Below are positions 12,822 through 64,000 of a DNA stretch of 64,000 nt, one piece after another. How positions within the stretch are numbered: position 1 is the first letter of the stretch; the number at the start of each line of letters is the position of its first letter. A program made the translations under genes and the position numbers. The notes below the pieces were generated by a model. That model did no database searches, was not told the DNA's origin, and saw only the letters and a list, made by a program, of their open reading frames with translations. Origin of the DNA: Chrysopilus asiliformis (Eukaryota > Arthropoda > Insecta > Diptera > Rhagionidae); assembly GCA_964034945.1 (NCBI GenBank), contig OZ035961.1:62970744-63034743 (forward strand), given 5' to 3'.

Positions 12822-13159
12822 TACTAGAAAACCAAGGAGTAATAAATCAGTTGTTAAAAGTCAGTCGACTAGGTTACAACAAAAAGTAGAAAATTTTGAA
12901 AGTGATTTTTGAAGGTGAAGGAAATTACCTGTAAAAATTGTAGAAGTGAGAAAAGTAACATTGAGGACGGAGAAAAGCAGACAAATAAAAAAAGGTTATA
13001 GTGAGGAAGTGAATAAGAGTAAAAGCAGAAATTGGGACATCAAGGAAATCAGAAAATCAAAGGAAAAAGTAAATAATAAAGATTTTAGTTTTTCATGATA
13101 ATTAAGGCATCGTCAACGAACACTAAGCACTGGAAATTAAGTACCGGAAATTATTTGAA

Positions 13160-29498: not shown

Positions 29499-29695
29499 TG
29501 TTAAGAATTAATCTAGTACAAATAGCATTGTTGATCTAATACATTTGTTTAGTATTCAACTTCATTGTAAACTCACTTATCAGTAGCGCTTTGAACTAAC
29601 TTATGCGATCTTTGAATTAACTAAATAAAACTTCCTTCTTCTACTTTTGTCACTCGACCGAAACACTGCGTTTTTCTTTACCACTAAAGTTAACA
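29499..29695 (+). repeat. copia 5' LTR
   Basis: Starts TGTTAAGAATTAATC and ends AAAGTTAACA (TG...CA). It contains AATAAA near 29624. Identical to the 3' LTR. Confidence 0.95.
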
Positions 29696-29711: not shown

Positions 29712-29847
29712 AGACCCTTAACCAAGGATACGGAAAGATCAAGACAAGCATTACGGAAATTGATTTGGAAGGCGGAATTTGCTGTAAATCTACAAGTAAG
29801 TTGTCTGTGATTTGTATTCGGTTCGAGGAAAGTAAGGTTAAAACCTC

Positions 29848-31065: not shown

Positions 31066-31454
31066 ATTTGTGGCACAATCGGTTAGGTTATCTCAACGCT
31101 GCATCACTTCGGGAACTTCAATCAAAAGCTATGGTCATAGGACTACCACCATTCAGAGCCAGCAGCAATTTGGAATGTCTCACGTGCATCAAGAGTAAGC
31201 AAACAAGGTTACCATTTCAAACAAAAAGGGAGAAATCGGCTACGGATCTGCTGGAGCTCATCCATTCTGATGTCTGCGGTCCAATGAAGACGGAATCTTT
31301 GGGTAAGTGCCGATATTTTGTAACCTTTATCGATGATTTTTCAAGAAAAATGTTCACTTTTTTTATGCGAACAAAAAATGAAGTATTCGAAAAATTTAAA
31401 TCATTTAAAGCTTTTGTCGAAAATCAAACCGGTAAAACAATCAAAAAAAAAACA
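31035..31454 (+). pseudogene. copia integrase, N-terminal part (interrupted)
   Basis: Carries the HHCC zinc-binding gag_pre-integrase domain (WHNRLGYLN ... CLTCIKSKQ) and the start of the rve core: LLELIHSDVCGPM with the first catalytic Asp and FVTFIDDFSRK. The copia reading ends at about GKTIKK (31450), where the TIR element begins. Confidence 0.88.
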
Positions 31455-32340
31455 TGTGTGTGCAGTGCACACGCGGTAGAAGTGAAACCTTAGGAAAACT
31501 AAACAGCGAGAGAATGAGACGAATGCGTTGAAAAACGGGAAAAAGGATATTTGCGGTATCCTTGCAGGACCTTCCGTTTCGAATTTTGAAAATCTAATAC
31601 CGGATTCATTATCAGCGACCCCAAAAACCCCCTTATGCCGATTTTTCCGAGGAAAAAGGGGAAAAAGGATATTTATCCTTACAGGACCTTCCGTTTCGAA
31701 TTTTGAAAATCTAATACCGGATTCGTGATCAGCGACCCCAAAAACCCTAAAATGCAAATTTTTCCGGAGAAAAATGATAAAAAGGATATTTTCATTATCC
31801 TTACAGGACCTTCCGTTTCGAATTTTGAAAATCTAATACCGGATTCGTGATCAGCGACCCCATAATGCCAATTTTTCCGGGGAAAAATGGGAAAAAGGAT
31901 ATTTTCATTATCCTTACAGGACCTTCCGTTTCGAATTTTGAAAATGTACATAGCTAAAAACTTGCTCCTGGCAACATAGATCATTTTGCAAAAAACCGCA
32001 TAAAAATCGGTCCAGTAGTTTTTGAGTTTTGTAATCTCAGGCAGACAGACAAACAGACAAACAATAAAACATCCATTTTTATATATATAGATATGTATAT
32101 ATTGCAATGTATGACGAAACATCAGTAATTTATCGCCTCCTCTCTCCACTTCCTCCCTCCTACCACTTCTCCCTTCCCCCCTTCCCCCTTCCCAATACTC
32201 TTGTTTAGGATAAATTGACCGGCACCCATCTGTATTCTATCTCATTTTCTCGCAGGCTAAAATATCCTATCTCTTTTTACTGTCGCTTTTTCGTTTCATC
32301 GAGTTTGAAATCACTCACAACGCCGCTAAAGAAGGTTTCA
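31455..32340 (-). mobile_element. Nested TIR element holding Helitron-like H4
   Basis: Inverted words GAAGTGAAACCTT (31479-31491) and AAGGTTTCACTTC (32332-32344) lie close to the two breakpoints of the copia integrase. The interior is an inverted Helitron-like sequence: its TCTATATATATAAAAATGG start is at 32091 on the minus strand, followed by the conserved core (31950-32040) and units of satellite D (31535-31920). Its CTAG end is missing. 32110-32210 is a pyrimidine-rich tract. Exact ends and target duplication could not be fixed. Confidence 0.6.
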
Positions 32341-33110
32341 CTTCAAAAATTAAGATCTGATAATGGAAAAGAATACGTTTGTAAAGAATTTTCAAATTTT
32401 TTGGAAAAATGCGGTATAAAACGTGAGTTCTCTGTTGAGTACACGCCTCAGCAGAATGGAGTTGCAGAGCGGGCAAATCGGACTCTAACCGAAATGGCCA
32501 GGTGCTTTGTGATAAAAAGCTGATTTCCACCTTCTTTATGGGCTGAGATGGTGAATACTTCGGCGTATATAAGAAACCGATGTCCTACCGAAGAAATATG
32601 GACAGGAAGAAAACCAAACATTTGTCATCTTAGGGAAATCGGTTCAACGGGTTTCGTTTTGAATAAAACCTCGAACAAAGGTAAATTCGATGCTCGCAGT
32701 GAAGAGTTCATTCTAGTTGGATACTCAGAAGAAGCCAAGGCCTACCGACTTTGGAAAAAGGGAACTAAATTAGTTATAAAAAGTAGAGATGTAAAATTCA
32801 CTAAAGTTTTCGAAAAGAATATTTTACAGGATAACTCTACCCAATTCTATGAAACAGTTTTTAACCCGACAGATCGGAATGTGGAAGACAAACCTACTAA
32901 AGAAGGGAAATCGGAGCAAAAATCCAATTCCGAAAACGACTCGGACGATGGCGAACAATTCTTCGAAACAGCCAATGTTGAATTGGATGCAGGTGCAAAT
33001 CAAGACTACGAATCAGACGCAACAAATAAGGAAAGTCAAAAAACTGATGAAACAACTCGAATAACAAGAAGCCAAAAGAAAAAATGGAAACAGCAAGTAT
33101 TGCAACAGAA
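32341..33110 (+). pseudogene. copia integrase, C-terminal part
   Basis: Resumes with LRSDNGKEYVC (second catalytic Asp) and TPQQNGVAERANRTL (catalytic Glu), then has an in-frame TGA at 32521-32523 in the place of a residue before PSLWAEM, and continues with NTSAYIRNRCPTE and FILVGYSEEAKAYRLW (copia C-terminal integrase motif). The frame shifts by one base in an A-run near 33080 into the reverse transcriptase frame. The TGA is a true substitution-type lesion. Confidence 0.85.
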
Positions 33111-33765
33111 ACTGGTGGATTGAAGGATCCAATTACCTTCAAGGATGCTTTAAATTCAGCGGAAGCAGATGAATGGAAAGCTGCCATGGAAGAGGAATTT
33201 AATTCGTTGTTAGCGAATGGAACATGGAGCTTAGTCGAACTACCAGAAGGAAGACGTGCAATTGGGAGCAAATGGGTGTTTCGAACCAAATACAGCTGCG
33301 ATGGCGCAGTAGATCGGCGCAAGGCCAGGTTAGTGGCCAAGGGTTTCTCGCAGAAACATGGTTTGGATTACACCGAAACCTTTTCACCAGTAGTACGGCA
33401 AAGTACTATAAGAATGATCTATGCCTTGACGGTGGAAAAAGATCTCGAACTTTGTCACATTGATATGTCAACTGCTTTCCTCAACGGAGATTTAAACGAA
33501 GAAATTTTCATGACTCAACCCGAAGGTTTTATACCAAAAGGATGCGAGGACAAAGTCTGTAAACTTAACAAGGCCATTTATGGACTAAAACAAGCAGGAA
33601 GACAGTGGAATTTCAAAATCACATCAAAACTAAAAGCAATGAATTATCACAATTCAAAATATGATGAATGCCTTTTCTTTCAGAAAGTCAACAACTCATT
33701 TACCGTCATAGCTGTTTACGTTGACGACTTGATAATAGCTACGAATGACGACAACAATTTAAAAA
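33084..33765 (+). pseudogene. copia reverse transcriptase (interrupted)
   Basis: RVT_2-type polymerase: EEFNSLLANGTWSLVELP, GSKWVFRTKYS, RKARLVAKGFSQKHGLDYTET, then DMSTAFLNGDL, LNKAIYGLKQAGRQW and the catalytic YVDD (VYVDDLIIATND). It is cut after about NNLKN by the family B insertion at 33766. Confidence 0.92.
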
Positions 33766-34929
33766 ATATCAGTTGTGGTCAACACAAAACTTTCTTCTAC
33801 AAAATCTACGACCCTGCGCAATTTACGCTAGAGCCCTGTCGCGTTGTCAACCTAAGACGACCTCCCAATAAATTCTTGGTTTATTCAAAAATATCAAAAA
33901 CGTACAAAATTTGAGATAACTTGAGAACTGTAAAAGATATCAATTTACGGTAAATGGCAAAAATGTAGAAAATGCTAACATCTTTAATGATTTGTCGAAA
34001 AACCGTTAGTTTGCAAATTATTCGCAAACATATGATTTTTTACATATTAATGAAAATATCTCAATAACGGTAAAATATAACGGATAACGGTAAGAAACAA
34101 AATTGTGCAGAATGCCATTCTCATTAATTCACTTCATACATTCAGTCAGCAAAAACCCGTTAGTTTTCGAGATAATCGCAAAAAACAGTTTTTTTTTTGG
34201 AAATAACGGTTTATCTCGATAACAGGTGGAGATATCGAGTTATAGCTAAAGACAAAAGTGTGGAAAATTTTATTTTCTCCAAGTTTTGTTATACTTAAGG
34301 CCACTAAAAAACGCGTAGTTTGGGAGTAAATCGAGAAAAACGAAATTGCGATTTTTGAAAAACCACCATTTTGGATACTTCCGGTTAACGGATTTCCACC
34401 AAAAGTTGATAGGATCGTCCCATTTCAGGACCCAACATGCCTATAAAATTTCATGGCGCTAGCTCCATTAGTTTTTGAGAAATCTTGTACACAGACTGAC
34501 AGACAGACTGACAGACAGACTGACAGACAGACTGACAGACTGACAGACTGACAGACTGACAGACTGACAGACTGACAGACTGACAGACTGACAGACTGAC
34601 AGACTGACAGACTGACAGACTGACAGACTGACAGACTGACAGACTGACAGACTGACAGACTGACAGACTGACAGACTGACAGACTGACAGACTGACAGAC
34701 TGACAGACTGACAGACTGACAGACTGACAGACTGACAGACTGACAGACTGACAGACTGACAGACTGACAGACTGACAGATTGACAGACTGACAGACAGAA
34801 AGACATTTTTTAAATATGACTCCAATCGACTCAGGAGTGATCGGGAAATGTTTTTTAGGCAAAATTAAGAGGTCGAAATTTTTCATGAATACAATACTTT
34901 ATTATACTCCGTAGAAGAAAGTAAATACT
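33766..34929 (-). repeat. Interspersed repeat family B, copy 4, with (ACAGACTG)n
   Basis: Inverted copy from CAGTTGTGG to GTAGAAGAAAG. A possible 5-bp duplication AAATA flanks it. It includes a long microsatellite at 34491-34800 made of ACAGACTG units (about 300 bp), much longer than in copy 1. Frames of the type QSVSLSVC across it are artefacts. Confidence 0.75.
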
Positions 34930-35818
34930 TAAGGACAGTCTGTCTAAAGACTTTAAGATTCACGATTTGGGAGCACCCAAACTGTGTATTGGTGTACAAC
35001 TTCTACGCCAACATGGGACAATCTCAATTTGTCAAAGTCGATACATCCAGGGCTTAACCGCCAAATATGGCCTACAGGATGCAAAAACAACTTCAATTCC
35101 ACTTCCAGTGAAGCTAAGATTGGAAAAGGAACCTAGTGTGGAGGGAGAGAGAACAAAAATCGATGCCAACAAATATCAAGAATTGATTGGCTGCCTGATG
35201 CATCTTGCAGTGTTTAGTCGTCCTGACATTGCCTGCAGTGTAAGCAATCTCTCACAATTTTGCGCGGATCCCCGAAAACAGCATTGGAACGCTGCAATGA
35301 CAGTTCTACGATACCTGAAGCACACCGTTCATGCAGCAATTACCTATCGACGAACTGGACAGAGACTTGTTGGATTCGCTGACGCTAGCTGGGCAGAGGA
35401 TCTCAATGACAGAAAATCGCAAACTGGTTTTGCATTTATGCTTGGAGGAGGAGTCATATACTGGGAATCCAGAAAACAACGAATCGTCGCTACTTCATCT
35501 ACCGAAGCCGAATACATATCCTTGTCGGCCGCTGCTAAGGAAGCACTTTATATTAGATACTTGCTAACCGAACTTAATTTTTGTTCACAGGAACCAACCA
35601 TTATCTATACAAACAGCCAGAGTGCTCAACACATTGCAGTATATATGGGACGTCAATCAAAGATGAAGCACGTCCACTACAAGTATCATTTCATCCGAGA
35701 GGCTATTGAAAATGATGTCATCGAACTCAAATACCTGTCCACAGATATGATGCCTGCAGATGCCTTGACTAAAGCGGTCCCTAAACCGAAGCATCATTTT
35801 TGTTTTAGCAGTTTGTGA
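34930..35818 (+). pseudogene. copia reverse transcriptase end and RNase H
   Basis: Resumes with KDFKIHDLGAPK, then the thumb (YQELIGCLMHLAVFSRPDIA), DALRYLKHT-type motif (MTVLRYLKHT) and the RNase H domain with GFADASWAED, SSTEAEYISLS and ALTKAVPK at the C terminus. It ends at TGA 35816-35818, just ahead of the polypurine tract. The segment is otherwise intact. Confidence 0.92.
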
Positions 35819-35851: not shown

Positions 35852-36048
35852 TGTTAAGAATTAATCTAGTACAAATAGCATTGTTGATCTAATACATTTG
35901 TTTAGTATTCAACTTCATTGTAAACTCACTTATCAGTAGCGCTTTGAACTAACTTATGCGATCTTTGAATTAACTAAATAAAACTTCCTTCTTCTACTTT
36001 TGTCACTCGACCGAAACACTGCGTTTTTCTTTACCACTAAAGTTAACA
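35852..36048 (+). repeat. copia 3' LTR
   Basis: 197 bp, identical to the 5' LTR, followed by the CTAAT target duplication. Confidence 0.95.
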
Positions 36049-41544: not shown

Positions 41545-42300
41545 CTAGCAGACCCTACGTTGCCAGCTTAAAGTTTTTTGTATAAATTTTAGACTGCCAA
41601 AAAACCATAAATAATGTTATGCTTAGAGGACCTTCCGTTTCGAATTTTGAAATTTCAACAACATATTCGTGATAAGCAACCATGAAAACCTCCCAAATCC
41701 AGCTTTTGCGAAAAAAAATGGAAAAAGGGCATTTGCGTTATCCTTACAGGACCACACACTAACCTTTCGTTAGAGTTATTGAAACTGAAACGCCGGATTC
41801 GTAATCAGCGACCCCAAAAACCCCCATTTTTCCGGGAAATAATGGGAAAAAGGATATTTTCGTTATCCTTACAGGACCTCTCGTTTCGAATGTTGAAACT
41901 CTAGCACCAGATTCGTGAAAAATTGGAAAAAGCATATTTGCGTTATCCTTACAGGACCTTCCATTTAGACTTCTAAAAATCTAACACCGGATTCGTGATC
42001 AGCGACCCGAAAAACCCTATAATGCAAAAGGATATTTTCGTTATCCTTACAGGACCTTCTGTTTCGAATTTTGAAAATCTAACGCCGGATTCGTGATCAG
42101 TGACCCGAAAAACCCCCTTATGCCGATTTTTCCCAGGAAAAACGGGAAGAAGAATATTTCTATTATCCTTACAGGACCTTTCGTTTCGAATTTTGAAAAT
42201 CTAATGCCGGATTCGTCATCAGCGACCCCAAAAACCCCATAACGCCAATTTTTGCGGGGAAGAATTGGAAAAAGGATAAAAAGGATATAAAAATTAGAAG
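41545..42300 (-). mobile_element. Helitron-like element H5, 5'-truncated, with diverged satellite D
   Basis: Begins on the plus strand with CTAGCAGACCCTACGTTG, the complement of the family's 3' end, preceded by A. Then come the AAAAACTTTAAGC-type end region and several diverged units of the 122-bp satellite (41630-42250). The TATATATA start and conserved core are missing at the right. Confidence 0.65.
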
Positions 42301-48408: not shown

Positions 48409-49539
48409 TCACAAATCACTGAAATAATTTGATATTAATAATCCTCGTGCAGTATCATTGTTATCTGGAGATGATTCAATATCAGCTGGCGAAATCTGTG
48501 CACGATCTAGTAAATTTTGAAAATCGTGGATTTCGATGGGAGGCAAATCTTCATGGGCATCAATCGCAATATTGTGGAGAATCGCACAAGCCACAATAAT
48601 GATTTGTACAGTATTTAGTTGTACTTTCATTCCTGTTGAAAGCACAGGAAAACGTCTCTTTATAACGCCATATGACCTCTCCACTGCATTGCGAGTTCGT
48701 ATTTGGCTTTCGTTATATAAATTATGTGCCTCAGTGTCGCATCTCAAAAATGGTGTGGCCAAATACTTCGTATTACGATAGCCCGAATCACCAACCAAAA
48801 TCGAATTGCCAAAATCGCCACGCTCAAACCGCATTTTTAATCTGGAATTATTAAAAATAGTTTGATCGTGCGAAGCACCTGGCCAACGTGCGACAATGTT
48901 GATCACCTTCAAATTAGCGGCGGCTACTGTCTGCACGTTGAGCGAAAACCAGCCTTTACGATTGCGATATCCTTCTGCATTATTTCCACCCGGCGAATTG
49001 ATTTTCACGTGAGTGCAATCGATGGCACCGATGGTCCACGGAAAATTAGCGATGCCAAGAAATGCTGCACTGGCTTCGACTCTTTCTCTTTCCGTCTCAG
49101 GCATTTTGATAAATTGTCGTCGCAGCTGACAAATTGCAGTGGAAACGCGACGAAGAATGTGACACACCGATGCACAGCACACACCGGCGATGCATAAAAC
49201 CGTAGTGCAATCAATAGCTGCGTTATTGGCAGGATATAACGCGATCTGAAGAGGAAGGAAAAAAACAAAATTAATATCCACTTAACATAAAATTAATATG
49301 ATCGACTATTTATCTGTTTACCTTTGTCCCTTAAACTCATGCGTTGGGCGTATCATTTCCAGAACCGTTGCAACAGTTTCCTTCCGCAAACGGAAGCGAC
49401 AAAAAAAATCATGGTCATCCCAATAATCCATATTTATCCGGACGCGGAATTTATATTGGCGACGTTCTCTGCCTAAATATTCCTCTTCGTCGTTGTCATC
49501 CGAAATTAAACGAGCGTCTGCTTCCAAAATGAAATTCAT
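48409..49539 (-). pseudogene. HARBI1-like DDE transposase of the PIF/Harbinger element, one frameshift
   Basis: Exon 1 runs from the ATG at 49539 (MNFILEADARL) to 49322 with WDDHDFFCRFRLRKETV and PTHEFKGQ. A 76-bp intron (49246-49321) joins in phase to exon 2 (RYILPITQLLIALRFYA). A one-base shift near 49195 leads to the catalytic domain: GAIDCTHVKI with the first Asp, VGDSGY with the second and RNAVERSYGVIKRRFP with the Glu, the HARBI1 DDE triad, ending at 48409. It converges with the Myb-like gene 120 bp away. It cuts and inserts the element at TTA sites. The single shift is not in a long homopolymer, so real inactivation is possible. Confidence 0.85.
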
Positions 49540-53841: not shown

Positions 53842-54049
53842 GGTTTTTGGGGTCGCTGATTACGAATCTGAAGTCAAAACTTCAAAATTCAAAATGGCGG
53901 ATCCAATATGGCGGTCAAAAAAGATAAAATTACGTACTAGTTTTCAGCGTAATCTAATGAATTTTATCTTTTTTGACCGCCATATTGGATCCGCCATTTT
54001 GAATTTTGAAGTTTTGACTTCAGATTCGTAATCAGCGACCCCAAAAACC
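53842..54049. repeat. Perfect 90-bp foldback
   Basis: 53842-53931 and 53960-54049 are exact reverse complements with a 28-base loop. The outer ends GGTTTTTGGGGTCGCTGATT are the same motif as the junction of satellite D units, so the foldback is made partly from satellite-like sequence; the inner part (ATGGCGGATCCAATATGGCG) is unrelated to the satellite. Confidence 0.95.
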
Positions 54050-55082
54050 CTCGGATACCAAAAACCGTGAAAATTAATTCCATAGAAAAATGTATGCATG
54101 AAATGGTTAAGACGATTCAGAGCACAGAACATCGATTTTCCGAAGTGAATCTCGCAAAATCAGTTCAATTTATTGAATTTAACCAGATTTTTTTCTAAAA
54201 TAAATTGTGGTTTTTGTTAAAGGTGGACAACCACATTATTAAAAACATCAAAGTTAAAGCGATCAAATACTATACATTTAACAAATTGAATCCCAAATAT
54301 GACAAATTTGTTAACATCAAATATTTGAAAATTTTCTCGTCTTTAATTTATGCGATCTGGTAATACGAAGTCCAATCTGTCAGTTTCAAATAAACAAATA
54401 AATCGAGTGCGAGTGACAAATCACAAAATGCAATATTTTTTGTGAAATATATATTTTAAGCAGTGTTAAATATTATTGTTCGGACATTTTGGGAAAGTTT
54501 TAATTAATTAAAGTGGAGAAATCTTGTTCCATTTACTTCAGAAGCAAAATGTAAACATTGGCGCTGGCCGAAACTTCTTAGTGTATATGTTGTGCATTGT
54601 TATATTGGAAATAGGGTCGGCTAAAAATCAGTTTTTCTTATTTTTTGTGTTCCGTGAAAATATATGTAAATTCAATTGTAGGGAAATGGAGCCCTTCAAT
54701 TTTGTTCATTTGAACATTTATTTAACTGAATCATGACTAAACAAGATGCGTTAGACAACTTTTATAAGTGATTTTTTTCTGTTTTCTCCTAAATATTTTT
54801 TATTTTGTTTCTCCCTGCGCCATCGCAAGAAAACAACAAGTCAGATGTTTTTTTATGAACTGCATTTAAGTGTGAAGGAGAAAAAGAAAAATCATACTGG
54901 TTCGAGTTTTTGTTCCCATAGTGGCTCTCTTTGCACTCATTACGCAAACGAGAAATTGGGTTTACTTCCCATCTATATATATCTAATCTATGTCCTTGCT
55001 TCCGAGTGAAAATAAGTAAAAAAAAATGTATTAAGGCAAATTGGTAGTAGCGTTTCTGCATGCGTAGTTAGTAATGTCTTAA
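54050..55082. other. Spacer
   Basis: AT-rich, no gene or repeat recognised. It ends in the TTAA target site of the piggyBac piece (55079-55082). Confidence 0.4.
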
Positions 55083-55718
55083 CCGTTGTGTTACCAACCA
55101 AATCTATCAACGTTAAATACCAACCAACATACCCGGGTATGCGATCAGAAAATCCTCAAATAATGCAACACTTTAGCACCAAAAATGCCATAGACGCCAT
55201 GTTGGGTCATACTACTTCCGCAAGTTCTTCAGCAACTAATGAAGAGCGTGATAATACAGGACGTATTAAACATAAGGGGAACTGCTATCTTTGTCCAAAA
55301 CGTAGACCAACTCGTAAGGCCTGTGGACAGTGCCAAAAACCGATTTGTCTTCAACATTCCATAGATGTAATTAAATGCTTGCAATGCCAACATTTATGAA
55401 CTTTGATGTATGTTCTATAATTTTTCTAATTTTGCAATAAATAAAAAATAAAAATCTAGCTTTCCAACCACATTTATCTAATAAATTTTGACTTACATAC
55501 CGGGGTATGCTGGTCAGTAACTAGAGAGCTACAAATCCAAATGTCGACAAAAATACCGTTTCCTCAAAAATTTTTTTTTTTGCTATTTCACAATCTGGCT
55601 AAGAACTAATATTTAGGCGAATAAAAAAAATTTCAGATCGATTGGAGCATGGGAACATGTTTTTTTTTGCAATTAAAAGTGAAAAACATACCCGGGTATG
55701 TGGTTGGTAATATAAGGG
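55083..55718 (+). mobile_element. Deleted piggyBac-type element
   Basis: Flanked by TTAA on both sides (55079-55082 and 55719-55722). Ends CCGTTGTGTTACCAACC and, inverted, CCCTTATATTACCAACC match at most positions. The palindrome ATACCCGGGTAT occurs just inside each end (near 55127 and 55689), and a variant near 55497. The 636-bp interior keeps only the last part of the transposase. Confidence 0.88.
55160..55399 (+). pseudogene. piggyBac transposase C-terminal cysteine-rich domain
   Basis: The C-terminal about 60 residues carry the cross-brace zinc-binding domain of piggyBac transposases: CYLCPKRRPTRKACGQCQKP, then ICLQH and CLQC near the stop at 55397-55399. In piggyBac this domain binds the transposon ends. 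The rest of the transposase, including the catalytic Asp residues, is gone; the frame is open leftwards into the terminal repeat but has no natural start. Confidence 0.82.
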
Positions 55719-56019
55719 TTAAATTGTTTATTTATTAGCGTGTCTTTTTATTGTGTAATTTTTGTGATTTCAATAATTTGGTAAAAATGGCAGATTGTTG
55801 TGTAATCGATAGCTTATTAAAACAATCATTTAGTTCGCGCTCTTTTTCTGAAAAACAAAATATTCTTGATCGCGGGAGACCAAAACAAAAGTTAAATATA
55901 ACAACAGTAAATAAAAGTTGTGCGAGACGATTTTCGGTCAAAGTTTACGAATATTTTAATTGGCTTTGCGGTTGTGCAAAAGTAGTATAGAAACGGGGCT
56001 TCTAGCCCGGAAGTTGACG
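55719..56019. other. Spacer
   Basis: A short frame at 55751-55990 has no recognisable features. Nothing else seen. Confidence 0.35.
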
Positions 56020-56290
56020 TCACGAGCACGTGTTGTTACGTCACGAGCACGTGTTGTGTATGAGTACTGGGCTGAGCTAAGGGAGCTGTGGTTTGATTTT
56101 GATAAGACTTGTGTGCAATACTTGGACGTGGGTGTGGTGAGGAGTGGAGTGGATGGCTTAGGATGGAGAGCACGTGTTGTTATTGAGTGCATGAGTACTG
56201 GGCTGAGCTGTGGTTTGATCTTGATAAGACTTGTGGGCAATACTTGGCCGTAGGTGGGGCGAGGTGTGGAGAGGATGGCTTAGCATGGGC
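56020..56290. repeat. GC-rich tandem duplication with E-boxes
   Basis: GAGTACTGGGCTGAGC and the following TGTGGTTTGAT.TTGATAAGA occur twice, about 135 bp apart (56058 and 56190). GAGCACGTGTTGT occurs three times (near 56025, 56043 and 56168), each with the E-box CACGTG. GC content is far above its neighbours. There is no gene. Confidence 0.65.
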
Positions 56291-56373
56291 GAGGGTAGGG
56301 CGGCGGCCTCGGTGTGTTAACCTATATTATTATAGTGTAGTAGGACCTCGGTATATTTTAACCACAAACAAGG

Positions 56374-56558
56374 ATATACAGATAACCAATGCGCATAGTA
56401 GCATCTGTTAGCTCGTAGCTGGCAAAACGAAATAAGAAAATACCGAAACCAACCGGCTGCGATGACTAGGATCGTGAAACATTCTATTTGATCGCCGAAA
56501 GGCAGAAAGGGAAGAGGATGGGTACAGATGCTACTATGGGCATTGGTTATCTGTATAT
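56374..56558. repeat. 35-bp inverted repeat (34 matches)
   Basis: ATATACAGATAACCAATGCG and 15 more bases at 56374-56408 are mirrored at 56524-56558, with a 115-base loop. It lies just left of the truncated edge of the viral element and may be a small TIR element or part of the breakpoint. Confidence 0.8.
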
Positions 56559-56582
56559 ATATATGTGTTTTAACTAGGCGAT

Positions 56583-56758
56583 GCGATCGATGTATATATG
56601 ATAGTAAGTACACAAAGCAGAGTTTGAATATTTCATATTATGAGTACCGTGAATATGAGAGAGAAAGATTCTTGACGAATGGAGAAATTGAAATCGTAAA
56701 TTATCAAGATAAATCTGATGTCGAATTGATAGATTTGAGATCAATGAAGCAATCATGA
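56583..56758 (+). pseudogene. 3' end of an unidentified viral gene (possibly DNA polymerase)
   Basis: Open frame ending at TGA 56756-56758 with YYEYREYERERFLTNGEIEI and an acidic tail, followed by AATAAA near 56788. It converges on the integrase gene 52 bp away, the tight packing of a viral genome. A C-terminal end of the Polinton PolB is a guess from position only; nothing in the sequence proves it. The left part is missing. Confidence 0.35.
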
Positions 56759-56810
56759 GTATTATTTAAGTTAAAGATTGTAATTGAAAAATAAAAAAAC
56801 AGTTTTAGTT

Positions 56811-57731
56811 TTAAATAATTTCGTTTTTATTAATCCATGAATTATGCTGAGGTGAAAAACCTAGCCATTTTACATAAACTTGTTCACCTCGTTTCTTCAG
56901 AATTTTTTCAACTAAATATACATCGGAGTGTTAAACTTTTGCTATTTCAAATTCATAAAACCCGCCCTCAATCGGTTGCTGCTGGTAATCTTTTAGGAGA
57001 TATGTAACGGGGTTTGTATTTTGAATTCTTCTAATTTGGAAAATCTCTGTTGTCCAGTTTGGTGTGTAGCCCTTTTCAAACACGTGTTTATATTTGCTTA
57101 TGCGAACCATGTCTCCAACTTTATACTTATTACGATCAAATAGTTTGAGGTGATTATAAACTGAGGAAAGTATACGTTTTTCGTTTGTTTTGCTAACATC
57201 AATGGGTGCCATTTTTATTGTGCTATGTTTTGTATGATTATATTGATCAATTAATTGATTTGTTAATTTAATCCATTTGTAGTTTCCATTCATACTAAAC
57301 TCCTTCCACATAAGATTTTTTAAGGTTCGATTAAATCGTTCGACTATCGATGCTTTCATTGTTGAATAAGTAGAGTAATGATTTATTTTATGCTTTTTCA
57401 TAAGAATTTGAAAATCTTTATTGTAAAATTCTTTTCCGTTATCTGTATGAAGATTCTTTGGTATACGTTTTGCTTTTAAAATTGATTGAAATGCTCTAGT
57501 GACTTCAAAGGCGGTCTTATTTTTTACTGGAATACCCCAAGCATACTTGGAAAATGTATCGATAACTGTGAGAAGATATCGATAGCCGTTATTATCGGAT
57601 GAATATGGTATCATTTCAACCAAATCTGCTTGCCATAAATCATCAATACCCTTAATAACAACACGTCTACGTTTGAAATTTCTTCGTGCTGGTTTATGAA
57701 GTTCATTCACGACTTGTCTCTTTTTATTCAT
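56811..57731 (-). pseudogene. Polinton-type integrase with chromodomain, split by one stop codon
   Basis: From ATG at 57731, 266 residues to a TAA at 56931-56933. Retroviral-type core (rve): WQADLVEM (D36), HTDNGKEF (D97) and SIVERFNRT (E131), the catalytic acids for strand transfer. Then VGDMVRISKYK and GYTPNWTTEIF, an SH3-like C-terminal part. After the TAA the same frame continues for 39 codons with DVYLVEKILKKRG, VYVKWLGF and HNSWI, a chromodomain, to a TAA at 56811-56813. In related proteins the chromodomain follows directly, so the first TAA is a nonsense lesion. The product lacking the chromodomain could still be catalytic, with altered targeting. It is divergent from the capsid genes. 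Confidence 0.9.
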
Positions 57732-58045
57732 AATGAGGATATTAAAACAACTAATATGTTTTTTAAAAATACCTATATATTTATACGAAATTTGTTACAC
57801 ACGTCTTGAAATCAACATGTTGAGATCTTTAGTTAATGTTCTTAGATTATTCTGTGACTCATTTATAATTTCATCATGAGCAATTTTCGAGAAATAGTTT
57901 TTTATATAATCTATTCAAGAAAATATAAAAAAGCGTAGTCTTTGGGTCGCGAACCTATACACTATTATTCAAGAGTTTATAAATCTAAGCGTTATACCCA
58001 TAGACTAAATATGCTTTTAAATATATAATCCAAAACCAGTATTAC
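57732..58045. promoter_or_regulatory. Divergent intergenic region, integrase / minor capsid
   Basis: About 315 bp between oppositely oriented genes. It must hold both promoters; TATA-like words (CCTATATATTTATACG near 57770; ATATATAATCC near 58020) are present but not decisive. Confidence 0.4.
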
Positions 58046-58748
58046 ATGAACTGTTATTGCGATCACACTAACGTTAGTCGGAAATAGCTCTATTCTTACA
58101 GCAGACTATTTTCCAACAATAGATTTACCCATTCCATATATATGTGGATTGATAGATCTACAAACTTATAATTCTATCCCTAATATTGATTCTACCAACA
58201 ACAAACTTCATCTACATAAGCAAATAATAGAAATACCGGAGGGATCATATGAAATTGAGGATATAAACCGATATATAGAAAAAGAATTAAAGACTGGAAC
58301 ACATTGTTTGCTTAACGCTAATAACAACACATTAAAAAGTACAATCAAATCGAACCAGCGAATTAACTTTGATCAAGATGATTCTATTGGATCTTTATTG
58401 GGATTTAGTAGAAAGAAAGAAAATGGAGAATCGAATATTCTCGAACCGAATAAATTACATGAATCAGATTTACCAGTAAACATAATAAAGGTGAATATTA
58501 TAAGAATAGAATGTGATTTAACAACATCAGCGTATATTAATAATAAGTTGGTCCATACTCTACATGAATTTTCTCCAATGGTTGGTCCTGGATATAAAAT
58601 AGTGGAAGTACCACAAAATGTAGTTTATTTACCTGTAACCGTTAACCGAATAAGTTCTATTACAATTAAACTTCTTGATCAAAACGGTGATCTAGTAAAT
58701 TTCAGAGGAGAAAATATTGTAGTAAGATTACATTTTCAACCAGCCTAG
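58046..58748 (+). pseudogene. Penton-like minor capsid protein (single jelly roll)
   Basis: The long frame ends at TAG 58746-58748. It is open from 58050 and includes the conserved ADYFPTIDLP and CGLIDLQTYNSIPN motifs, so initiation at the TTG near 58149 is wrong. The fitting ATG at 58046 is one base out of frame, a small insertion at the very start. Later motifs: HTLHEFSPMVGPGYKIVE, VVYLPVTVNRISSITIKLLD and NFRGENIVVRLHF at the C terminus. This family is common in insect genomes next to double-jelly-roll genes and is interpreted as the vertex protein. Two bases separate it from the next small frame. Confidence 0.75.
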
Positions 58749-58750
58749 CC

Positions 58751-58906
58751 ATGATCATTTACAACCTGAATAAAAGCGGGAGCGAAACAGTTTTATCTAC
58801 TAGTGATATATCAACTACCAAATCGTTAACATCAGCCCAGAGGAAACAGTTATCAACCTTCAATAAACAATTTCTCGAATATATCGGGTGTACTTTACGA
58901 AAATGA
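58751..58906 (+). CDS. Small 51-residue protein overlapping the major capsid start
   Basis: ATG at 58751, two bases after the minor capsid stop, to TGA at 58904-58906. The TGA shares bases with the ATG of the major capsid gene (ATGA overlap, 58903-58906). The product is hydrophilic, with a Ser/Thr-rich middle and SAQRKQLSTFNKQF near the end, and no membrane segment. Not a family I recognise. The tight spacing on both sides is the best evidence that it is real; it could be a small capsid or scaffold protein, which is a guess. Confidence 0.55.
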   Translation: MIIYNLNKSGSETVLSTSDISTTKSLTSAQRKQLSTFNKQFLEYIGCTLRK

Positions 58907-60118
58907 CAGATATATTGAATATTGGACAACCAATTAAATTTGATGATCGCATAACTAAAATAGAAGAGCGAAAAATTTTACCATATAACACTTTAACATA
59001 TAATTCTGGTGACGAAATAAGATTTCAAATAAATCATCAGGAGCATTGTATAGATTTGAGTGAGAGTTCCCTATACATAGAAGGAAAATTATTAAATGCA
59101 GATAGGACTGCAGCCGATATTGCTAAAGTAAAACTTGTTAACAATGCTGGGGCATTTTTATTTGATGAAGCTCGCTATAATGTATGTACTAAGGAAATTG
59201 ATCGAACAAGAAATGTTGGTATCACTTCTACATTAAAAATACTTTCTACAAGGAGTAGTGATGAAGCATCCAGTCTTTCTCATAGTGGATGGTGGCAAAA
59301 AACAACAGACTCAACAACTATATCCCCACATTTTAATTTCATTATAAAGTTGGGTAGTATTTTAGGTGTGGCAGATGATCATAAACGAATTATCCCGAAT
59401 GCTCAACATGAACTGATTCTTGTACGTTCTAAGAACGATGATAATATTTGGATTAGTGCTACAGAGAGTGGATGTATAATTTCCATTGTAAAAATTGAAT
59501 GGAGGGTTCCATTTGTATTTTTAAATGATGTAGAGAAATTAAAACTTTACAAAACGATAAATACAGGGAAACCTATACAGTTAGCCTTCAGAACATGGGA
59601 TTTAAATGAATATCCATTATTACCAACTACCAAAAATCATCAATGGACGGTAAAAACAAGTACGCAACTTGAAAAACCTAGATATGTTTTCTTTGTGATG
59701 CAGACGAAGCGAAATAATGTAAAAACAGCCGATATCAGTCGGTTTGATCATAATAATTTAGAAGAATTTACCGTTTATTTGAATGATGAAAAAATTTCCC
59801 AACTTTGATTTAAATTTGAATTTTTATACCAACCAGTATGCGATTCTATACGAGCAGTTTTTAAAATTTCAAAAGTCGTATACATTTTCTAATGAATCTC
59901 AACCTCAATTGAATGTACGCGATTTCATGGAGTCTCCGTTTGTAATAATTGATTGTTCACGTCAAAGCGAAGTCATAAAGTCCGGATCTGTGGATATCCG
60001 ACTAGAGTTCAAGACCAAGTCAAATATTCCGGACAAGACAACTGCGTATTGTGTAATTGTACATGATCGGATCGTAGACTATTATCCGATAGAGAATAGG
60101 ATTGAAACTCATATATAA
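58903..60118 (+). pseudogene. Double jelly-roll major capsid protein, one frameshift
   Basis: Start chosen at the ATG at 58903 because of the ATGA overlap; MTDILNIGQPIKFDD is the usual N terminus of this family. Other motifs: LPYNTLTYNSGDEIRFQIN and LYIEGKLL early, HSGWWQKT and HFNFIIKLGSILGVADDH in the middle, VEWRVPF-type (IEWRVPFVF) and FFVMQTKRN later. At a run of A at about 59791-59796 the frame moves by one base: frame one stops at 59808, frame two continues (FYTNQYAILYEQFLKFQKSY, VIIDCSRQSE) to TAA at 60116-60118. Total length is about 405 codons. It forms the hexon-like shell of the virion. The lesion is a one-base homopolymer difference, so it may be an assembly error or a true break. 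Confidence 0.85.
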
Positions 60119-60177
60119 CAGATATGTTTTCTTGGATTCTATCAGTTTTCATCATAATTTTGAGTTGTGAGGTAGTC

Positions 60178-60699
60178 ATGGTAGTATTTATCGATATTCA
60201 AGGATTTCGGGGGATTTCTAATGAATTCATCCCTAAAGAAGTGGCGATTTTATACGATAAAACTGATGAATACCAGCATTTCTTAATAAAACCACCTTTT
60301 GAAAAGGGGAATTTAACACCGAAACTCCAGAGACAGACTAATTGGTTAACTGATCGATATCATGGATTGTATTGGGAAGATGGAACTGTATCATTGGAAT
60401 GTTTAAAAAAATTCATGTTTACGAACCTTATCGGTAAAATAATTCTTGTGAAAGGTTTAGAAAAGAAAATATATTTAGAGCAACTATTGAAAGTAAAAAC
60501 TGAAAATCCGTTTATCGCTGTTAAGAACTTGGATGATTATAGATGTCCAAATTTTAAAGATTTAACAAAGACTTGTGAATTTGTAAAATGTAAGCTTGTT
60601 AAATGTCATCATCACAAACAAAATTGTGCCCTGGAAAATACATATAAATTAAGATTCTTTGTATATCATATGATAAATTATAAAACTGTATGTGTGTGA
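60178..60699 (+). CDS. Nuclease-like protein of the viral element (RNase H/DEDD-like guess)
   Basis: Frame to TGA at 60697-60699. An upstream in-frame ATG at 60124 would add a hydrophobic stretch, but MVVFIDIQGF from the ATG at 60178 resembles the usual start in similar insect ORFs, so 60178 is preferred. The FIDIQGF start resembles motif I of DEDD exonucleases. Further on are FLIKPPF, QTNWLTDRYHGLYW, ILVKGLEKK and a C-terminal Cys/His cluster (CPNF, CEFVKCKLVKCHHHK, C). Known as a recurrent unannotated protein beside Polinton capsid genes in insects; the nuclease reading is inference. AATAAA follows the stop. Confidence 0.6.
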   Translation: MVVFIDIQGFRGISNEFIPKEVAILYDKTDEYQHFLIKPPFEKGNLTPKLQRQTNWLTDRYHGLYWEDGTVSLECLKKFMFTNLIGKIILVKGLEKKIYLEQLLKVKTENPFIAVKNLDDYRCPNFKDLTKTCEFVKCKLVKCHHHKQNCALENTYKLRFFVYHMINYKTVCV

Positions 60700-60864
60700 A
60701 TAAATACATATATATTATATATCAAATCATTTTTTATTTCTCCAATCTATCGTTTCAATATTTAGAAATCATGTTCAATCATGTTCAACCATGAATCACC
60801 AGATCAGACTTGAAGGTATTTTACTGTTTCAGTTTTCCGAAGAATTTTTATTGAATTAGACGCA

Positions 60865-61038
60865 ATGAGTGACAAAAAGCTTCTCTTGAGAGAAGATAAG
60901 AATATTAGTAAATATAAAGAGTTTAAAAGTACAGTAAAATTAAATCTTTTTAGTAGAAAAGAAGATTATAATAGTGTTACTTCAAAAAAGAATTCAAATA
61001 TTAAATATGAGAAATTGAAAGAAAATAATTCAAAATGA
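60865..61038 (+). CDS. Small Lys-rich 57-residue ORF
   Basis: ATG at 60865 to TGA at 61036-61038. Highly charged, rich in Lys (about one in four), with Ser/Asn, no hydrophobic segment. Lies in the 500-bp space between the convergent nuclease-like and collagen-like genes. A basic DNA-binding (core-like) protein would fit, but there is no family evidence and the sequence bias alone could produce such a frame. Confidence 0.35.
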   Translation: MSDKKLLLREDKNISKYKEFKSTVKLNLFSRKEDYNSVTSKKNSNIKYEKLKENNSK

Positions 61039-61201
61039 AAAAAATAATAAGTCGATAACAAAATGTGAGCTGGAAGATTCTTACGAAAATAAGTTAACCA
61101 CAAAGTGTTTTGATAAAATGAGATGATAAGAGGAATGTTATATGTAATGAAAAATTGAATCAATAAAAAAGTTTTACAATGTATTTTTTAAATTTTATTT
61201 T

Positions 61202-61573
61202 TCAAACTCTAATTAGTACATCATCAATACATTTTTGGAATTTTTCTTCAGATTGTCTTATAATTTCAAGTATTTCTTCCCTCAGATCCTGAACGGCTAT
61301 TCTGATATTTCTGATATTAGCAACATCTGTAGATGCTACACCGTCTCCTAAATCTTTGAGAAATATTCCACCCAGGCTGTATTCCTTATTTTGTACATGC
61401 TGTAGTCCTACTCCTGGATCACCCTTTGGTCCTCGTAACCCCTGCACCCCGGGAGGCCCAATGGGGCCTTGTATTCCAGGTGGTCCAGTAGCTCCAATGG
61501 GACCAGGTGGTCCACGCTCTCTTAAATTTAACGTGCTGTTGTTGAAAAAGCGACCAAACTTATCTACGCTCAT
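61202..61573 (-). CDS. Collagen-like protein of the viral element
   Basis: ATG at 61573, 123 residues. After 19 residues comes a run of about 12 Gly-X-Y triplets ([14 protein letters not shown] ... GPKGDPG), then a non-collagen C-terminal part with [20 protein letters not shown], predicted helical and possibly trimerising. It is separated by only 21 bases from the next gene on the same strand. Collagen triple helices are found in fibres or surface proteins of various viruses; a virion fibre role here is inference. Confidence 0.7.
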
Positions 61574-61594
61574 ATTTGAAGTGATGAAATTGTT

Positions 61595-62524
61595 TTAATA
61601 AAATGGATTTTTATATGATGAAATAATGTTTGCTTCCTTCAACTCTTCGAGAATCGAAATTATCTCATTGTTGTGATTATTATGACCGGCTTGTTGTGAA
61701 CCATAGAGTAAACGTAGCCTATCTACCAATTCATTAGGATCGTCCCAATGAACATAATCTATGTTTGATAACGGTATATTCATAAAAATCATGTTTTTGC
61801 TCCTTGAGTATGGTTTTTTAATACCACTACCGAGTTTTTGATTAAATTTAACTTTATGTAATTTTTTTATAACATCTCTATATTTTATACTATTATTTCC
61901 CTGAATTTGACTATTTTTATCATAGTTTCGTCGATGTGCACTCGTTTCCTCTACAATTTCATTATAATTTTCTAAATCGTCTTTTGTATACACTTCATCA
62001 GAGGGATACTTTTTAAACATCAACTGATATAACCCTTCAGTAGCGTTATACTTTTTTCCATTGATTATGATATTTTGAGATGAATCTGTAGTAACTATAG
62101 CGTTTCCAATTTTCCAGTCACTTCCACTTTTGCGTACACCATACTTTGTATCAAGACTATGAGCCTCAGGATTCTTATGATATTCAAAATATCGTAATAA
62201 ACTTGGACTGCTTGGTGTATGGGGTATATTTAGTTCATTATATGTTTCATTAGAAATATCTTCATCGTCAAACAAAAGTTCACGTTTTACATGGTTTGAA
62301 GTTGAAGGTGTTGCTTTGTTTTTGCTTTCAGATGTGGTTTCATGATCAATCTTTTCATCTTTTATCGTCTCGATTTTGGTTAGCTTTTTCAGCGGTTCTG
62401 ATATTGTTTTAACGGTATCCTCAAGTTCCGTATCTAAAGCGATTCTACCGCTTTTAAGAGCATTATATTTCTGGCGTATGTTTTTACGTGCCTGAATTAA
62501 TTCCTTTACAACTTTTTTATCCAT
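61595..62524 (-). CDS. DUF8207-type protein of the viral element
   Basis: ATG at 62524, 309 residues, intact. The N terminus (1-80) is charged and helical ([19 protein letters not shown]). The middle has [18 protein letters not shown] and [16 protein letters not shown], the end [20 protein letters not shown] and [15 protein letters not shown]. This arrangement is common in insect ORFs next to PLA2-like and capsid genes and corresponds, as I recall it, to DUF8207. Function unknown; a virion or assembly protein is plausible. It lies downstream of the ATPase on the same strand, after a repeat-rich 180-bp gap. Confidence 0.72.
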
Positions 62525-62534
62525 TATATTTATT

Positions 62535-62695
62535 ATATTAGATAGCTCTGCTGGAGAGGTCTGTTGTTGAAGACAGATCTGTTGGTAATGAGAGGTCTGT
62601 TGTTGAAAACAGGTCTGTTATGGAAGACAGGTCTGTTGGTAATGAGTGGTCTGCTTGTTGAAAACAGGTCTGTTATGGAAGACAGGTCTGATGAT
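62535..62695. repeat. Tandem AGGTCTGTT repeats between viral genes
   Basis: AGGTCTGTT or AGACAGGTCTG words recur about eight times; the larger unit GTTGTTGAAAACAGGTCTGT with TATGGAAGACAGG appears twice (about 62600-62695). On the minus strand it is the leader of the DUF8207-type gene. No product. Confidence 0.75.
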
Positions 62696-62704
62696 TCCAT
62701 TAAC

Positions 62705-63409
62705 TCATAATTCTATGTAAGTATCGAAACCTTTCCTATAATGCCCTTGATTTATGGAGCTATCTTTATCAATTACTAAAAACCCATATGCTTCCTTCCA
62801 GCACTCTCTACATAACTTCCGAAAGTAATCAAAACTCATATCTGAGTTTACATGATCATTATAAATATGTTTCAAATTTAAATCATCCTGTTTAAACACG
62901 ATAAGAAGATTAGCATTATCTCTTATTAAATGCTTCGGTATTCGAGTGTAAGTTTGACAAAGATAAAAACTATCAACTTCAAAATGTCGACCCATACAAA
63001 AATATTCTCTTATATTATTTTGTTTCTCACAAGCAACATCATCAAAGATGAATACCGAATTTGGTTTAGCTTGTTTTGCTGGAATGACTTCAGTATTGTT
63101 TGAAAATGTGAAATATCCTGTTTCATGAAGACATTTCACAATTTCACGTAATTTTTTATATTTCGGTTGATGGATTGATTTAGAGTAAATATATATATTT
63201 TGGAATCTCAATCCGTTTTCGTGTACTAACAAACTTATCATAACATTGGTTTTCCCACAATTCGAAGGTCCTACTATTAAACACCTTATACTGTTTGGTA
63301 ACAAAGGTCCATGTTTCGTTCTTTCCATCGATTTCACATCATCAACATTACAAATCGGTAACGTTGCTCTTTGCTTAATGAAACGCATCGTACTGATGAA
63401 TAGATGCAT
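62705..63409 (-). CDS. A32/FtsK-type genome-packaging ATPase
   Basis: ATG at 63409 (a second ATG, MRFIKQ, at 63388 is equally possible). 234 residues, intact. Walker A GPSNCGKT (47-54), Walker B VFIFDD (119-124), and GRHFEVDSFYLCQTYTRIPK after it, the sensor region typical of poxvirus A32-like and Polinton ATPases. It pumps DNA into preformed capsids. Together with the capsid genes it indicates that the ancestor made virions. It is divergent from the PLA2 gene, 179 bp apart. Confidence 0.9.
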   Translation of the reverse strand: MHLFISTMRFIKQRATLPICNVDDVKSMERTKHGPLLPNSIRCLIVGPSNCGKTNVMISLLVHENGLRFQNIYIYSKSIHQPKYKKLREIVKCLHETGYFTFSNNTEVIPAKQAKPNSVFIFDDVACEKQNNIREYFCMGRHFEVDSFYLCQTYTRIPKHLIRDNANLLIVFKQDDLNLKHIYNDHVNSDMSFDYFRKLCRECWKEAYGFLVIDKDSSINQGHYRKGFDTYIEL

Positions 63410-63588
63410 AAATATAATAATTTTATGTCAGTACATCCACATATAATGGTTGTAGTTGTGGAAGAAAATTGATTTATATACATCATGATACAAATTAATA
63501 TTTGTTATTGCATCTAATGTAAATATATAAATACTGGATGTTTATAACTTGATAGTCATTACCGATATATCTTTTGATAGAGTAACAA
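63410..63588. promoter_or_regulatory. Divergent intergenic region, ATPase / PLA2 protein
   Basis: 179 bp between two oppositely oriented start codons, so both promoters are presumably here. AT-rich with TATATAAATAC near 63525-63535 on the plus strand as a TATA candidate for the PLA2 gene. Confidence 0.45.
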
Positions 63589-64000
63589 ATGATAAACTAT
63601 TCTCATAGTAAGTCATCATCATTAAAAAACCATCGCAAAAGCGGAAAAGGTTTAATAAATTCCCTCATTAATAAATTACCCTTCGAACTTCATCTGCCGG
63701 GATACCAATATTGTGGACCGGGTACAAAGCTGCAAAAACGATTAGCTAGAGGAGATCAGGGAATCAACGATTTAGACAAAGCTTGTAAAGAACACGATAT
63801 AGCATATTCCAAAAATAAGGATACAATAAATCGAAATATTGCTGATAGAGTGTTGGTGGAAAAGGCCTGGCAGAGAGTAAAAGCTGCAGATTCTAGTTTG
63901 GGTGAAAAGACTAACGCATTACTCGTAACTAATCTCATGAAAGCTAAAAGTAAATTCGGAATGGGTCTTAAGAGGAAATCTAAAAAGAAACGCGGCGGAA
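63589..64000 (+). CDS. Parvovirus-like phospholipase A2 capsid-associated protein (partial, runs off the window)
   Basis: ATG at 63589, 137 codons to the window edge without a stop. After a basic N terminus comes LPGYQYCGPGT with the calcium-binding loop (Y41-C42-G43-P44-G45), then DKACKEHDIAYS with the catalytic His69-Asp70 pair, and a helical segment KAWQRVKAADSSLGE. This is the PLA2 type found at the N terminus of parvovirus VP1 and in many insect genome ORFs of Polinton kind. In parvoviruses it acts on endosomal membranes during entry. The C-terminal tail turns very basic (KRKSKKKRGG), which may be a nuclear localisation signal. Confidence 0.88.
   Translation, partial: MINYSHSKSSSLKNHRKSGKGLINSLINKLPFELHLPGYQYCGPGTKLQKRLARGDQGINDLDKACKEHDIAYSKNKDTINRNIADRVLVEKAWQRVKAADSSLGEKTNALLVTNLMKAKSKFGMGLKRKSKKKRGG

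What the first reader, a model, noticed from the sequence alone, without database searches (positions are those of the whole stretch)
56583..64000. Endogenous Polinton/adintovirus-like virus with a nearly continuous capsid-packaging module
At least ten closely packed genes on both strands combine a retroviral-type integrase, penton-like and double-jelly-roll capsid proteins, an A32-type packaging ATPase, a parvovirus-like PLA2 protein and a collagen-like protein. Four genes (nuclease-like, collagen-like, DUF8207-type, ATPase) are intact and three lesions are single-base or single-codon, so this looks young. The gene set differs from classical Polintons in the collagen-like and PLA2 genes, and no protease or polymerase is seen.
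Basis: partly seen in the sequence, partly recalled or inferred. Interest (0 to 1): 0.88.

Follow-up and report, generated by a model that had tools for sequence, protein, structure and literature searches.

The report
Decaying endogenous Maverick-type DNA virus
This is the left part of a virus-like Maverick (Polinton) element sitting in a host genome, with capsid, packaging, integration and membrane-entry genes of a kind already known from insects; three of its genes appear broken by small mutations.

Summary
The core observation holds. Eight gene-sized units lie in about 7 kb; five have profile matches: integrase, double-jelly-roll capsid protein (PF21738, E 1.1e-68 and 4.4e-33 on either side of one frame break), A32-type ATPase, parvovirus-type PLA2 protein cut by the window end, and a collagen repeat just under its cut-off. 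Penton, 'nuclease' and DUF8207 labels found no profile support. Three lesions are present; under neutral decay they imply about 0.2-0.5% divergence (95% range 0.05-1.6%). PLA2 in Polintons, and PLA2 with chromodomain integrase and A32-like ATPase in insect Mavericks, are already in print. Absence of PolB and protease cannot be judged, because the window stops inside the element. No relative was obtained: the genome search did not complete, the protein database was off, and nine collection scans gave nothing related. Verdict: a young-looking, partly broken new member of a known kind; the collagen-like gene is the least expected part.

The parts
55981..56812 (.). probable left end and left terminal region: starts AGTAGT, about 830 bp without a recognised gene, with direct repeats (56045-56166 / 56168-56288, 82%) and a 35-nt inverted pair (56374-56408 / 56524-56558)
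   Evidence: AGTAGT at 55981 is the only + strand copy between 55000 and 57000, 11 in the window; repeats; (AGT)2 is the most common terminus of intact vertebrate Mavericks (PMC8097293, passage). Right-hand copy lies outside the window.
56814..56930 (-). integrase chromodomain, same frame as the integrase, behind an in-frame stop at 56931-56933
   Evidence: PF00385 1.8e-6, 28.2 bits against cut-off 25.1; Chromobox protein homolog 5 chain 1.8e-4
56931..57794 (-). retrovirus-type integrase core; D57, D118, E152 of the ORF, 33 residues between second D and E
   Evidence: rve 2.2e-16; solved integrases, best 2.2e-8, PFV integrase 6.7e-8; positions
58050..58748 (+). candidate penton (minor capsid) gene without an in-frame ATG before its N-terminal part
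   Evidence: no Pfam or NCBIfam family, PDB none, PHROGs nothing better than 0.093; assigned by position upstream of the MCP (PMC4028283, passage); ATGs
58751..58906 (+). 51-aa ORF between candidate penton and MCP, function unknown
   Evidence: best match 0.087, below cut-off
58903..60118 (+). double-jelly-roll major capsid protein gene with one frame break inside the ORF overlap 59783-59808
   Evidence: PF21738 1.1e-68 for profile 1-220 and 4.4e-33 for 221-316 in two overlapping ORFs
60106..60699 (+). intact 197-aa ORF with a Cys/His-rich C-terminal part, unidentified (reader: nuclease-like)
   Evidence: fold without alignment useless, pLDDT 31.9
61202..61594 (-). collagen-like protein, 123 aa from its first ATG: short N-terminal part, about 34 residues of Gly-X-Y, hydrophilic, possibly coiled-coil C-terminal part (coiled coil not tested)
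   Evidence: Collagen PF01391 1.2e-5, ORF residues 28-61, below cut-off; phage tail-fibre PHROGs to 1e-6, as Gly-X-Y repeats would give
61595..62617 (-). intact ORF, 309 aa from ATG, family unknown
   Evidence: no Pfam family at E up to 10; length
62705..63427 (-). A32-type packaging ATPase with GPSNCGKT (Walker A, by recall)
   Evidence: Pox_A32 8.1e-8, 32.5 bits against cut-off 22.8
63586..64000 (+). parvovirus-type PLA2 protein, cut by the window end
   Evidence: Phospholip_A2_4 1.6e-14; virus capsid VP1 chains, best 0.0026, with YxGPG loop and HD pair aligned

Best explanation
The left part of an integrated Maverick/Polinton-type double-stranded DNA virus with the gene combination known from insect Mavericks that carry PLA2. 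Inferred way of working: the integrase, perhaps steered by its chromodomain, inserts the linear genome into host chromatin; double-jelly-roll proteins and a penton-like protein build an icosahedral shell; the A32-type ATPase packs the genome; the PLA2 protein breaches the endosomal membrane on entry, as proposed for Polintons by analogy with parvoviruses; the collagen-like protein is a trimeric surface fibre. Shown here by profile: integrase, chromodomain, capsid, ATPase, PLA2, and (below cut-off) the collagen repeat; seen in the sequence: three lesions. Inferred: every functional step, the penton, the fibre role, and that this copy no longer makes virions by itself.
For: Pfam matches for integrase, capsid, ATPase, PLA2 and chromodomain; six ORFs longer than any in 200 simulated sequences; (AGT)2 at 55981 as in published Mavericks; candidate penton upstream of the MCP with one small ORF between, as in Polintons; PLA2, chromodomain integrase and A32-like ATPase together in Spodoptera Mavericks, with some similar sizes: ATP 228, ORF2 305, INT 310, ORF7 404 aa there against a 240-aa ORF, 309 aa, 266 plus 39 aa on the two sides of the integrase stop, and capsid pieces of 297 and 107 aa here.
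Against: PolB, protease, right terminal repeat and target duplication are not in the window. The penton has no profile support and its fold without alignment failed (pLDDT 32.5). Not all Spodoptera sizes fit: ORF6 148 and ORF8 158 aa have no obvious partner among the 232- and 197-aa ORFs here. Integrase orientation differs from the two-module layout of vertebrate Mavericks. AGTAGT would turn up about 0.19 times by chance in the 1.1 kb where the end could lie (11 per 64 kb). No related locus was obtained for synteny or a tree.
Confidence: 0.92

Rival explanations
1. A truncated or internally deleted Maverick that lacks PolB and protease and moved by helper functions of a sister copy.
For: Neither gene appears among the ten ORFs scanned in the 8 kb that can be seen.
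Against: PolB alone is about 3.5 kb in Spodoptera Mavericks and Mavericks are typically 15-25 kb (PMC6431247, passage), so a large part is unseen and absence here is uninformative.
Confidence: 0.1
2. Viral genes kept by the host for its own use (for example the ATPase, lipase or fibre-like gene), the rest decaying.
For: Four ORFs and the visible PLA2 part are open while three others are broken.
Against: Three lesions among eight genes is also what a recent insertion gives; no relatives for a selection test.
Confidence: 0.04
3. A patchwork of unrelated insertions in a transposon-rich region.
For: The window is dense in other transposons.
Against: A similar gene combination is published as one element in insects; spacing is tight; among the ten ORFs of the block no reverse transcriptase or parvovirus NS1 matched; no second copy of the ten queried pieces occurs in the window at E 0.01, except 47 integrase residues at 32350-32496 (3.5e-4), which lie in the Copia region.
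Confidence: 0.02
4. The capsid gene break is a programmed frameshift rather than a mutation.
For: Slippery sites were proposed from computation for some adintovirus penton and hexon genes (PMC11071296, passage).
Against: The break cuts one continuous profile between positions 220 and 221, so the second part is the ordinary rest of the capsid protein and not an alternative tail; other genes carry lesions too. No relative was available to see whether the break is conserved.
Confidence: 0.02

Closest known systems
Spodoptera frugiperda Mavericks 1 and 2 (PMC5803895)
   Same: A32-like ATPase, rve integrase with C-terminal chromodomain, PLA2-bearing parvovirus-VP1-like protein, several similar protein sizes
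   Different: There eight small tandem ORFs share one strand and the authors report no PY (DJR) homologue; here both strands are used and the capsid matches PF21738. Their 404-aa ORF7 has the size of the capsid gene here, which suggests, untested, that it is the DJR protein. 'Collagen' does not occur in that text.
Polintons/Mavericks in general (PMC4028283, PMC8097293, PMC4642659)
   Same: DJR capsid, penton position, ATPase, integrase, (AGT)2 terminus; PLA2 in some
   Different: PolB, protease, right end not visible; integrase orientation differs from vertebrate Mavericks; collagen-like gene extra
Adintoviruses (definition in PMC11071296)
   Same: rve integrase with C-terminal chromodomain; DJR capsid gene
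   Different: defining PolB with OTU-like domain cannot be seen; hexon kinship by BLASTP not tested
Polinton-like viruses of protists with collagen-containing fibres (PMC12220804)
   Same: collagen triple-helix repeats in predicted surface fibres
   Different: those are large modular proteins, often with an endosialidase chaperone; here a 123-aa stand-alone protein

Membership tests
Maverick/Polinton | rve-type integrase | tested here: met
   PF00665 2.2e-16, D-D-(33)-E; gene carries a stop before the chromodomain
Maverick/Polinton | double-jelly-roll major capsid protein | tested here: met
   PF21738, profile 1-316 covered over two ORFs
Maverick/Polinton | packaging ATPase | tested here: met
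   Pox_A32 8.1e-8
Maverick/Polinton | penton (single jelly-roll minor capsid protein) | tested here: inconclusive
   right position; no profile match; fold failed
Maverick/Polinton | protein-primed PolB | not testable with these tools
   window ends inside the element; own-genome search did not complete in 14 tries
Maverick/Polinton | adenovirus-type cysteine protease | not testable with these tools
   not among the visible ORFs; rest of the element not available
Maverick/Polinton | terminal inverted repeats with AGT/AG end motif and 6-bp target duplication | tested here: inconclusive
   (AGT)2 at 55981 preceded by TGCAAA; right end absent; about 0.19 such motifs expected by chance in the candidate 1.1 kb
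Adintovirus | integrase with C-terminal chromodomain | tested here: met
   PF00385 1.8e-6 in frame behind a stop
Adintovirus | PolB with OTU-like domain | not testable with these tools
   outside the window
Adintovirus | hexon reciprocally recognisable by BLASTP with adintovirus hexons | not tested
   protein database off; no adintovirus sequences at hand
Parvovirus/densovirus | PLA2 domain of VP1 type | tested here: met
   PF08398 1.6e-14; VP1 chains
Parvovirus/densovirus | NS1 helicase and parvovirus capsid protein | tested here: not met
   no such match among the ten ORFs scanned; sequence right of 64000 unseen

The most novel reading that the evidence does not exclude
A Maverick lineage that has equipped its virion with a compact stand-alone collagen/coiled-coil fibre (short N-terminal anchor, roughly 10-nm triple helix by recalled geometry, C-terminal trimer) as its attachment organ, beside a PLA2 entry enzyme: an attachment-plus-penetration kit assembled from unrelated virus families.
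Probability: 0.2. Interest if true: 0.45.

Novelty: new member of a known kind. Interest (0 to 1): 0.27.

Why it matters
Mavericks link transposons, adenoviruses and insect viruses, yet their particles had not been observed when PMC8097293 was written (abstract in listing). A recent-looking copy with readable capsid, ATPase, PLA2 and fibre-like genes is a good anchor for finding intact copies and transcripts in its host. It also suggests that the 404-aa ORF7 of Spodoptera Mavericks may be the capsid protein reported there as missing. Otherwise it adds one member to a known group.

Tried and rejected
Relatives: three protein scans of viral contigs (ATPase, capsid, integrase; 0, 7 and 8 pattern stretches, none confirmed by tblastn) and five pattern scans gave three loci, L001-L003, with no tblastn match to the ten pieces better than 0.35. 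One scan of genome contigs with the PLA2 pattern gave six loci, L004-L009, in bacterial or archaeal contigs; best match 25 residues at E 0.011, and the surrounding frames look unrelated, so I take them for chance. PHROGs gave mainly transposases and tail fibres, the rest at 0.011 or weaker; NCBIfam gave IS481/IS3/IS30-type transposases, collagen adhesins and weak others, all below cut-off. Structure prediction from single sequences failed for both proteins tried (pLDDT 32.5 and 31.9), so no fold search was run. PDB sequence searches for the first capsid piece, ATPase and candidate penton gave nothing better than 0.18, 0.034 and none.

Considered and rejected: programmed frameshift in the capsid gene; mosaic of unrelated insertions; absence of PolB as a property of the element. 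The fragment at 55739-55980 looks to me like a hAT-type TTF zinc-finger gene and 55016-55722 like a piggyBac end (TTAA); both are recalled and Pfam gave no support, so the left boundary rests on the AGTAGT motif.

Papers: not held are PMC8502044 (Starrett et al., adintoviruses), PMC1450207 and PMC5898198. Answered searches: adintovirus (12), adintoviruses+PLA2 (53, no paper), polinton+phospholipase (54), polinton+collagen (61), Mavericks+insect+double jelly-roll+integrase (85), Polintons/TIR/6-bp target site (90). I saw these listings, and passages by term search in PMC11071296, PMC11071308, PMC8363768, PMC3671162, PMC4642659, PMC9896142, PMC4061559, PMC4028283, PMC12220804, PMC6431247, PMC9683012, PMC8097293 and PMC5803895; of the last also part 1 of section 11. 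No paper was read whole.
Full report
Observation. The region 56583-64000 holds a dense set of open reading frames on both strands. Their lengths are not chance: 200 first-order Markov sequences of the same composition never gave an ORF above 174 aa, while six here have 197 to 340 aa. Of ten ORFs scanned against Pfam, six match with good scores: the integrase core, two pieces of one double-jelly-roll capsid protein, an A32-type ATPase and a parvovirus-type PLA2 domain above the curated cut-offs, and a collagen repeat just below it; four have no credible match (candidate penton, 60106-60699, the small ORF at 60814, and 61595-62617) (three of these four again).

Additions. In the integrase frame, behind one stop codon, 39 residues match the chromodomain (PF00385 1.8e-6; Chromobox 5 chain 1.8e-4). 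An integrase with a C-terminal chromodomain is named as an adintovirus trait in PMC11071296 (passage) and was found in Spodoptera Mavericks in PMC5803895 (passage). The integrase keeps D57, D118 and E152.

Left end. AGTAGT at 55981 is the only + strand copy between 55000 and 57000; there are 11 in the 64-kb window. That is about 0.007 per 40 bp, but about 0.19 over the 1.1 kb in which the end could lie, so the motif alone is suggestive, not decisive. PMC8097293 gives (AGT)2 as the most common end of intact vertebrate Mavericks, and 6-bp target duplications (passages). The motif is followed by some 830 bp without recognised genes but with direct and inverted repeats. The six bases before it are TGCAAA. 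The right end lies outside the window, so terminal inversion and duplication are untested. That the flank is a hAT fragment is recalled, not shown.

Lesions and age. One stop in the integrase; no in-frame ATG between 58047 and 58578 in the candidate penton, a lesion only if that N-terminal part is coding; one frame break in the capsid gene whose two sides match adjacent profile positions 220 and 221. Over 5877 coding bases with 5.35% of single changes creating a stop, three lesions correspond to 0.23-0.53% neutral divergence for indel-to-substitution ratios of 0.2 to 0.05, with Poisson 95% limits of 0.05-1.55% over these ratios. This assumes that all three arose after insertion, that all genes decay neutrally and that the assembly is correct. 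'Young' is justified to that extent only.

What it is. Integrase, DJR capsid, ATPase and the probable (AGT)2 end make it a Maverick/Polinton-type element; the candidate penton sits upstream of the capsid gene with one small ORF between, where Polintons carry it (PMC4028283, passage). PLA2 is not a departure: PMC4642659 states that some Polintons encode lipases closest to the PLA2 of parvovirus capsids and proposes that they are packed into virions and help entry (passage), and PMC5803895 reports PLA2 with conserved catalytic and cofactor-binding residues in insect Mavericks (passage). In the window the YxGPG loop and the HD pair align with solved virus capsid chains (best E 0.0026, entries named capsid protein or VP1, one adeno-associated virus DJ). 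Some Spodoptera sizes fit: ATP 228, ORF2 305, INT 310, ORF7 404 aa, against 240 (stop to stop), 309, 266 plus 39, and 297 plus 107 here (the capsid boundary is one I set inside the ORF overlap). Others do not: ORF6 148 and ORF8 158 have no obvious partner.

Collagen-like protein. ORF residues 28-61 carry the Gly-X-Y repeat. In protist Polinton-like viruses collagen repeats occur in predicted fibre proteins (PMC12220804, passages), and Sputnik and Organic Lake virophages carry collagen-like proteins (PMC3671162, passages). My search for polinton plus collagen listed 19 papers; none has a title about an animal Polinton with such a protein, but I opened only two of the 19 for that word. The word did not occur in PMC11071296, PMC11071308, PMC8363768, PMC4642659 or PMC5803895. 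The main adintovirus paper is not held. So I cannot say that an animal Maverick with a collagen-like gene is unreported. I read it as a trimeric surface fibre; this is inference.

Limits. The host is not identified; the surrounding transposons fit an animal, and 'insect' is inference. No related locus was obtained in nine collection scans, the host genome could not be searched, the protein database was off, and structure predictions without alignments were worthless. Synteny, phylogeny, PolB, protease and the right end remain open, and membership of the adintoviruses in the strict sense is not claimed.

Noticed in passing
29499-29695 and 35852-36048: 197-bp direct repeats, 100% identical, flanking Copia-type coding sequence (29842-35815, named from reading): look like LTRs of a recent retrotransposon insertion.
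   Followed up: partly
13127-17807: Helitron with Helitron_like_N (1e-58) and PIF1 (7.5e-62) domains in a 1155-aa ORF at 14343-17807, overlapped by another long ORF at 13127-14548.
   Followed up: partly
53842-54049: Perfect 90-nt inverted repeat with 28 nt between the arms; its ends are 75-83% like roughly 50-nt repeats, many spaced about 122 bp apart, at 6390-7524, 9606-9775, 31574-31865 and 41635-42236.
   Followed up: partly
62557-62690: Minisatellite of 18/54-bp units between the ATPase gene and the coding start of its neighbour.
   Followed up: no
55687-55722: Sequence ending GGGTTAA beside a Cys-rich ORF (55016-55399), by recall a piggyBac end; no Pfam match.
   Followed up: no
48412-49281: Transposase ORF with a complete DDE_Tnp_4 domain (4.8e-27), Harbinger-like by recall.
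   Followed up: no
34428-34898: ORFs with a long tandem CQSVSLSV-type repeat on the minus strand, inside the Copia region.
   Followed up: no
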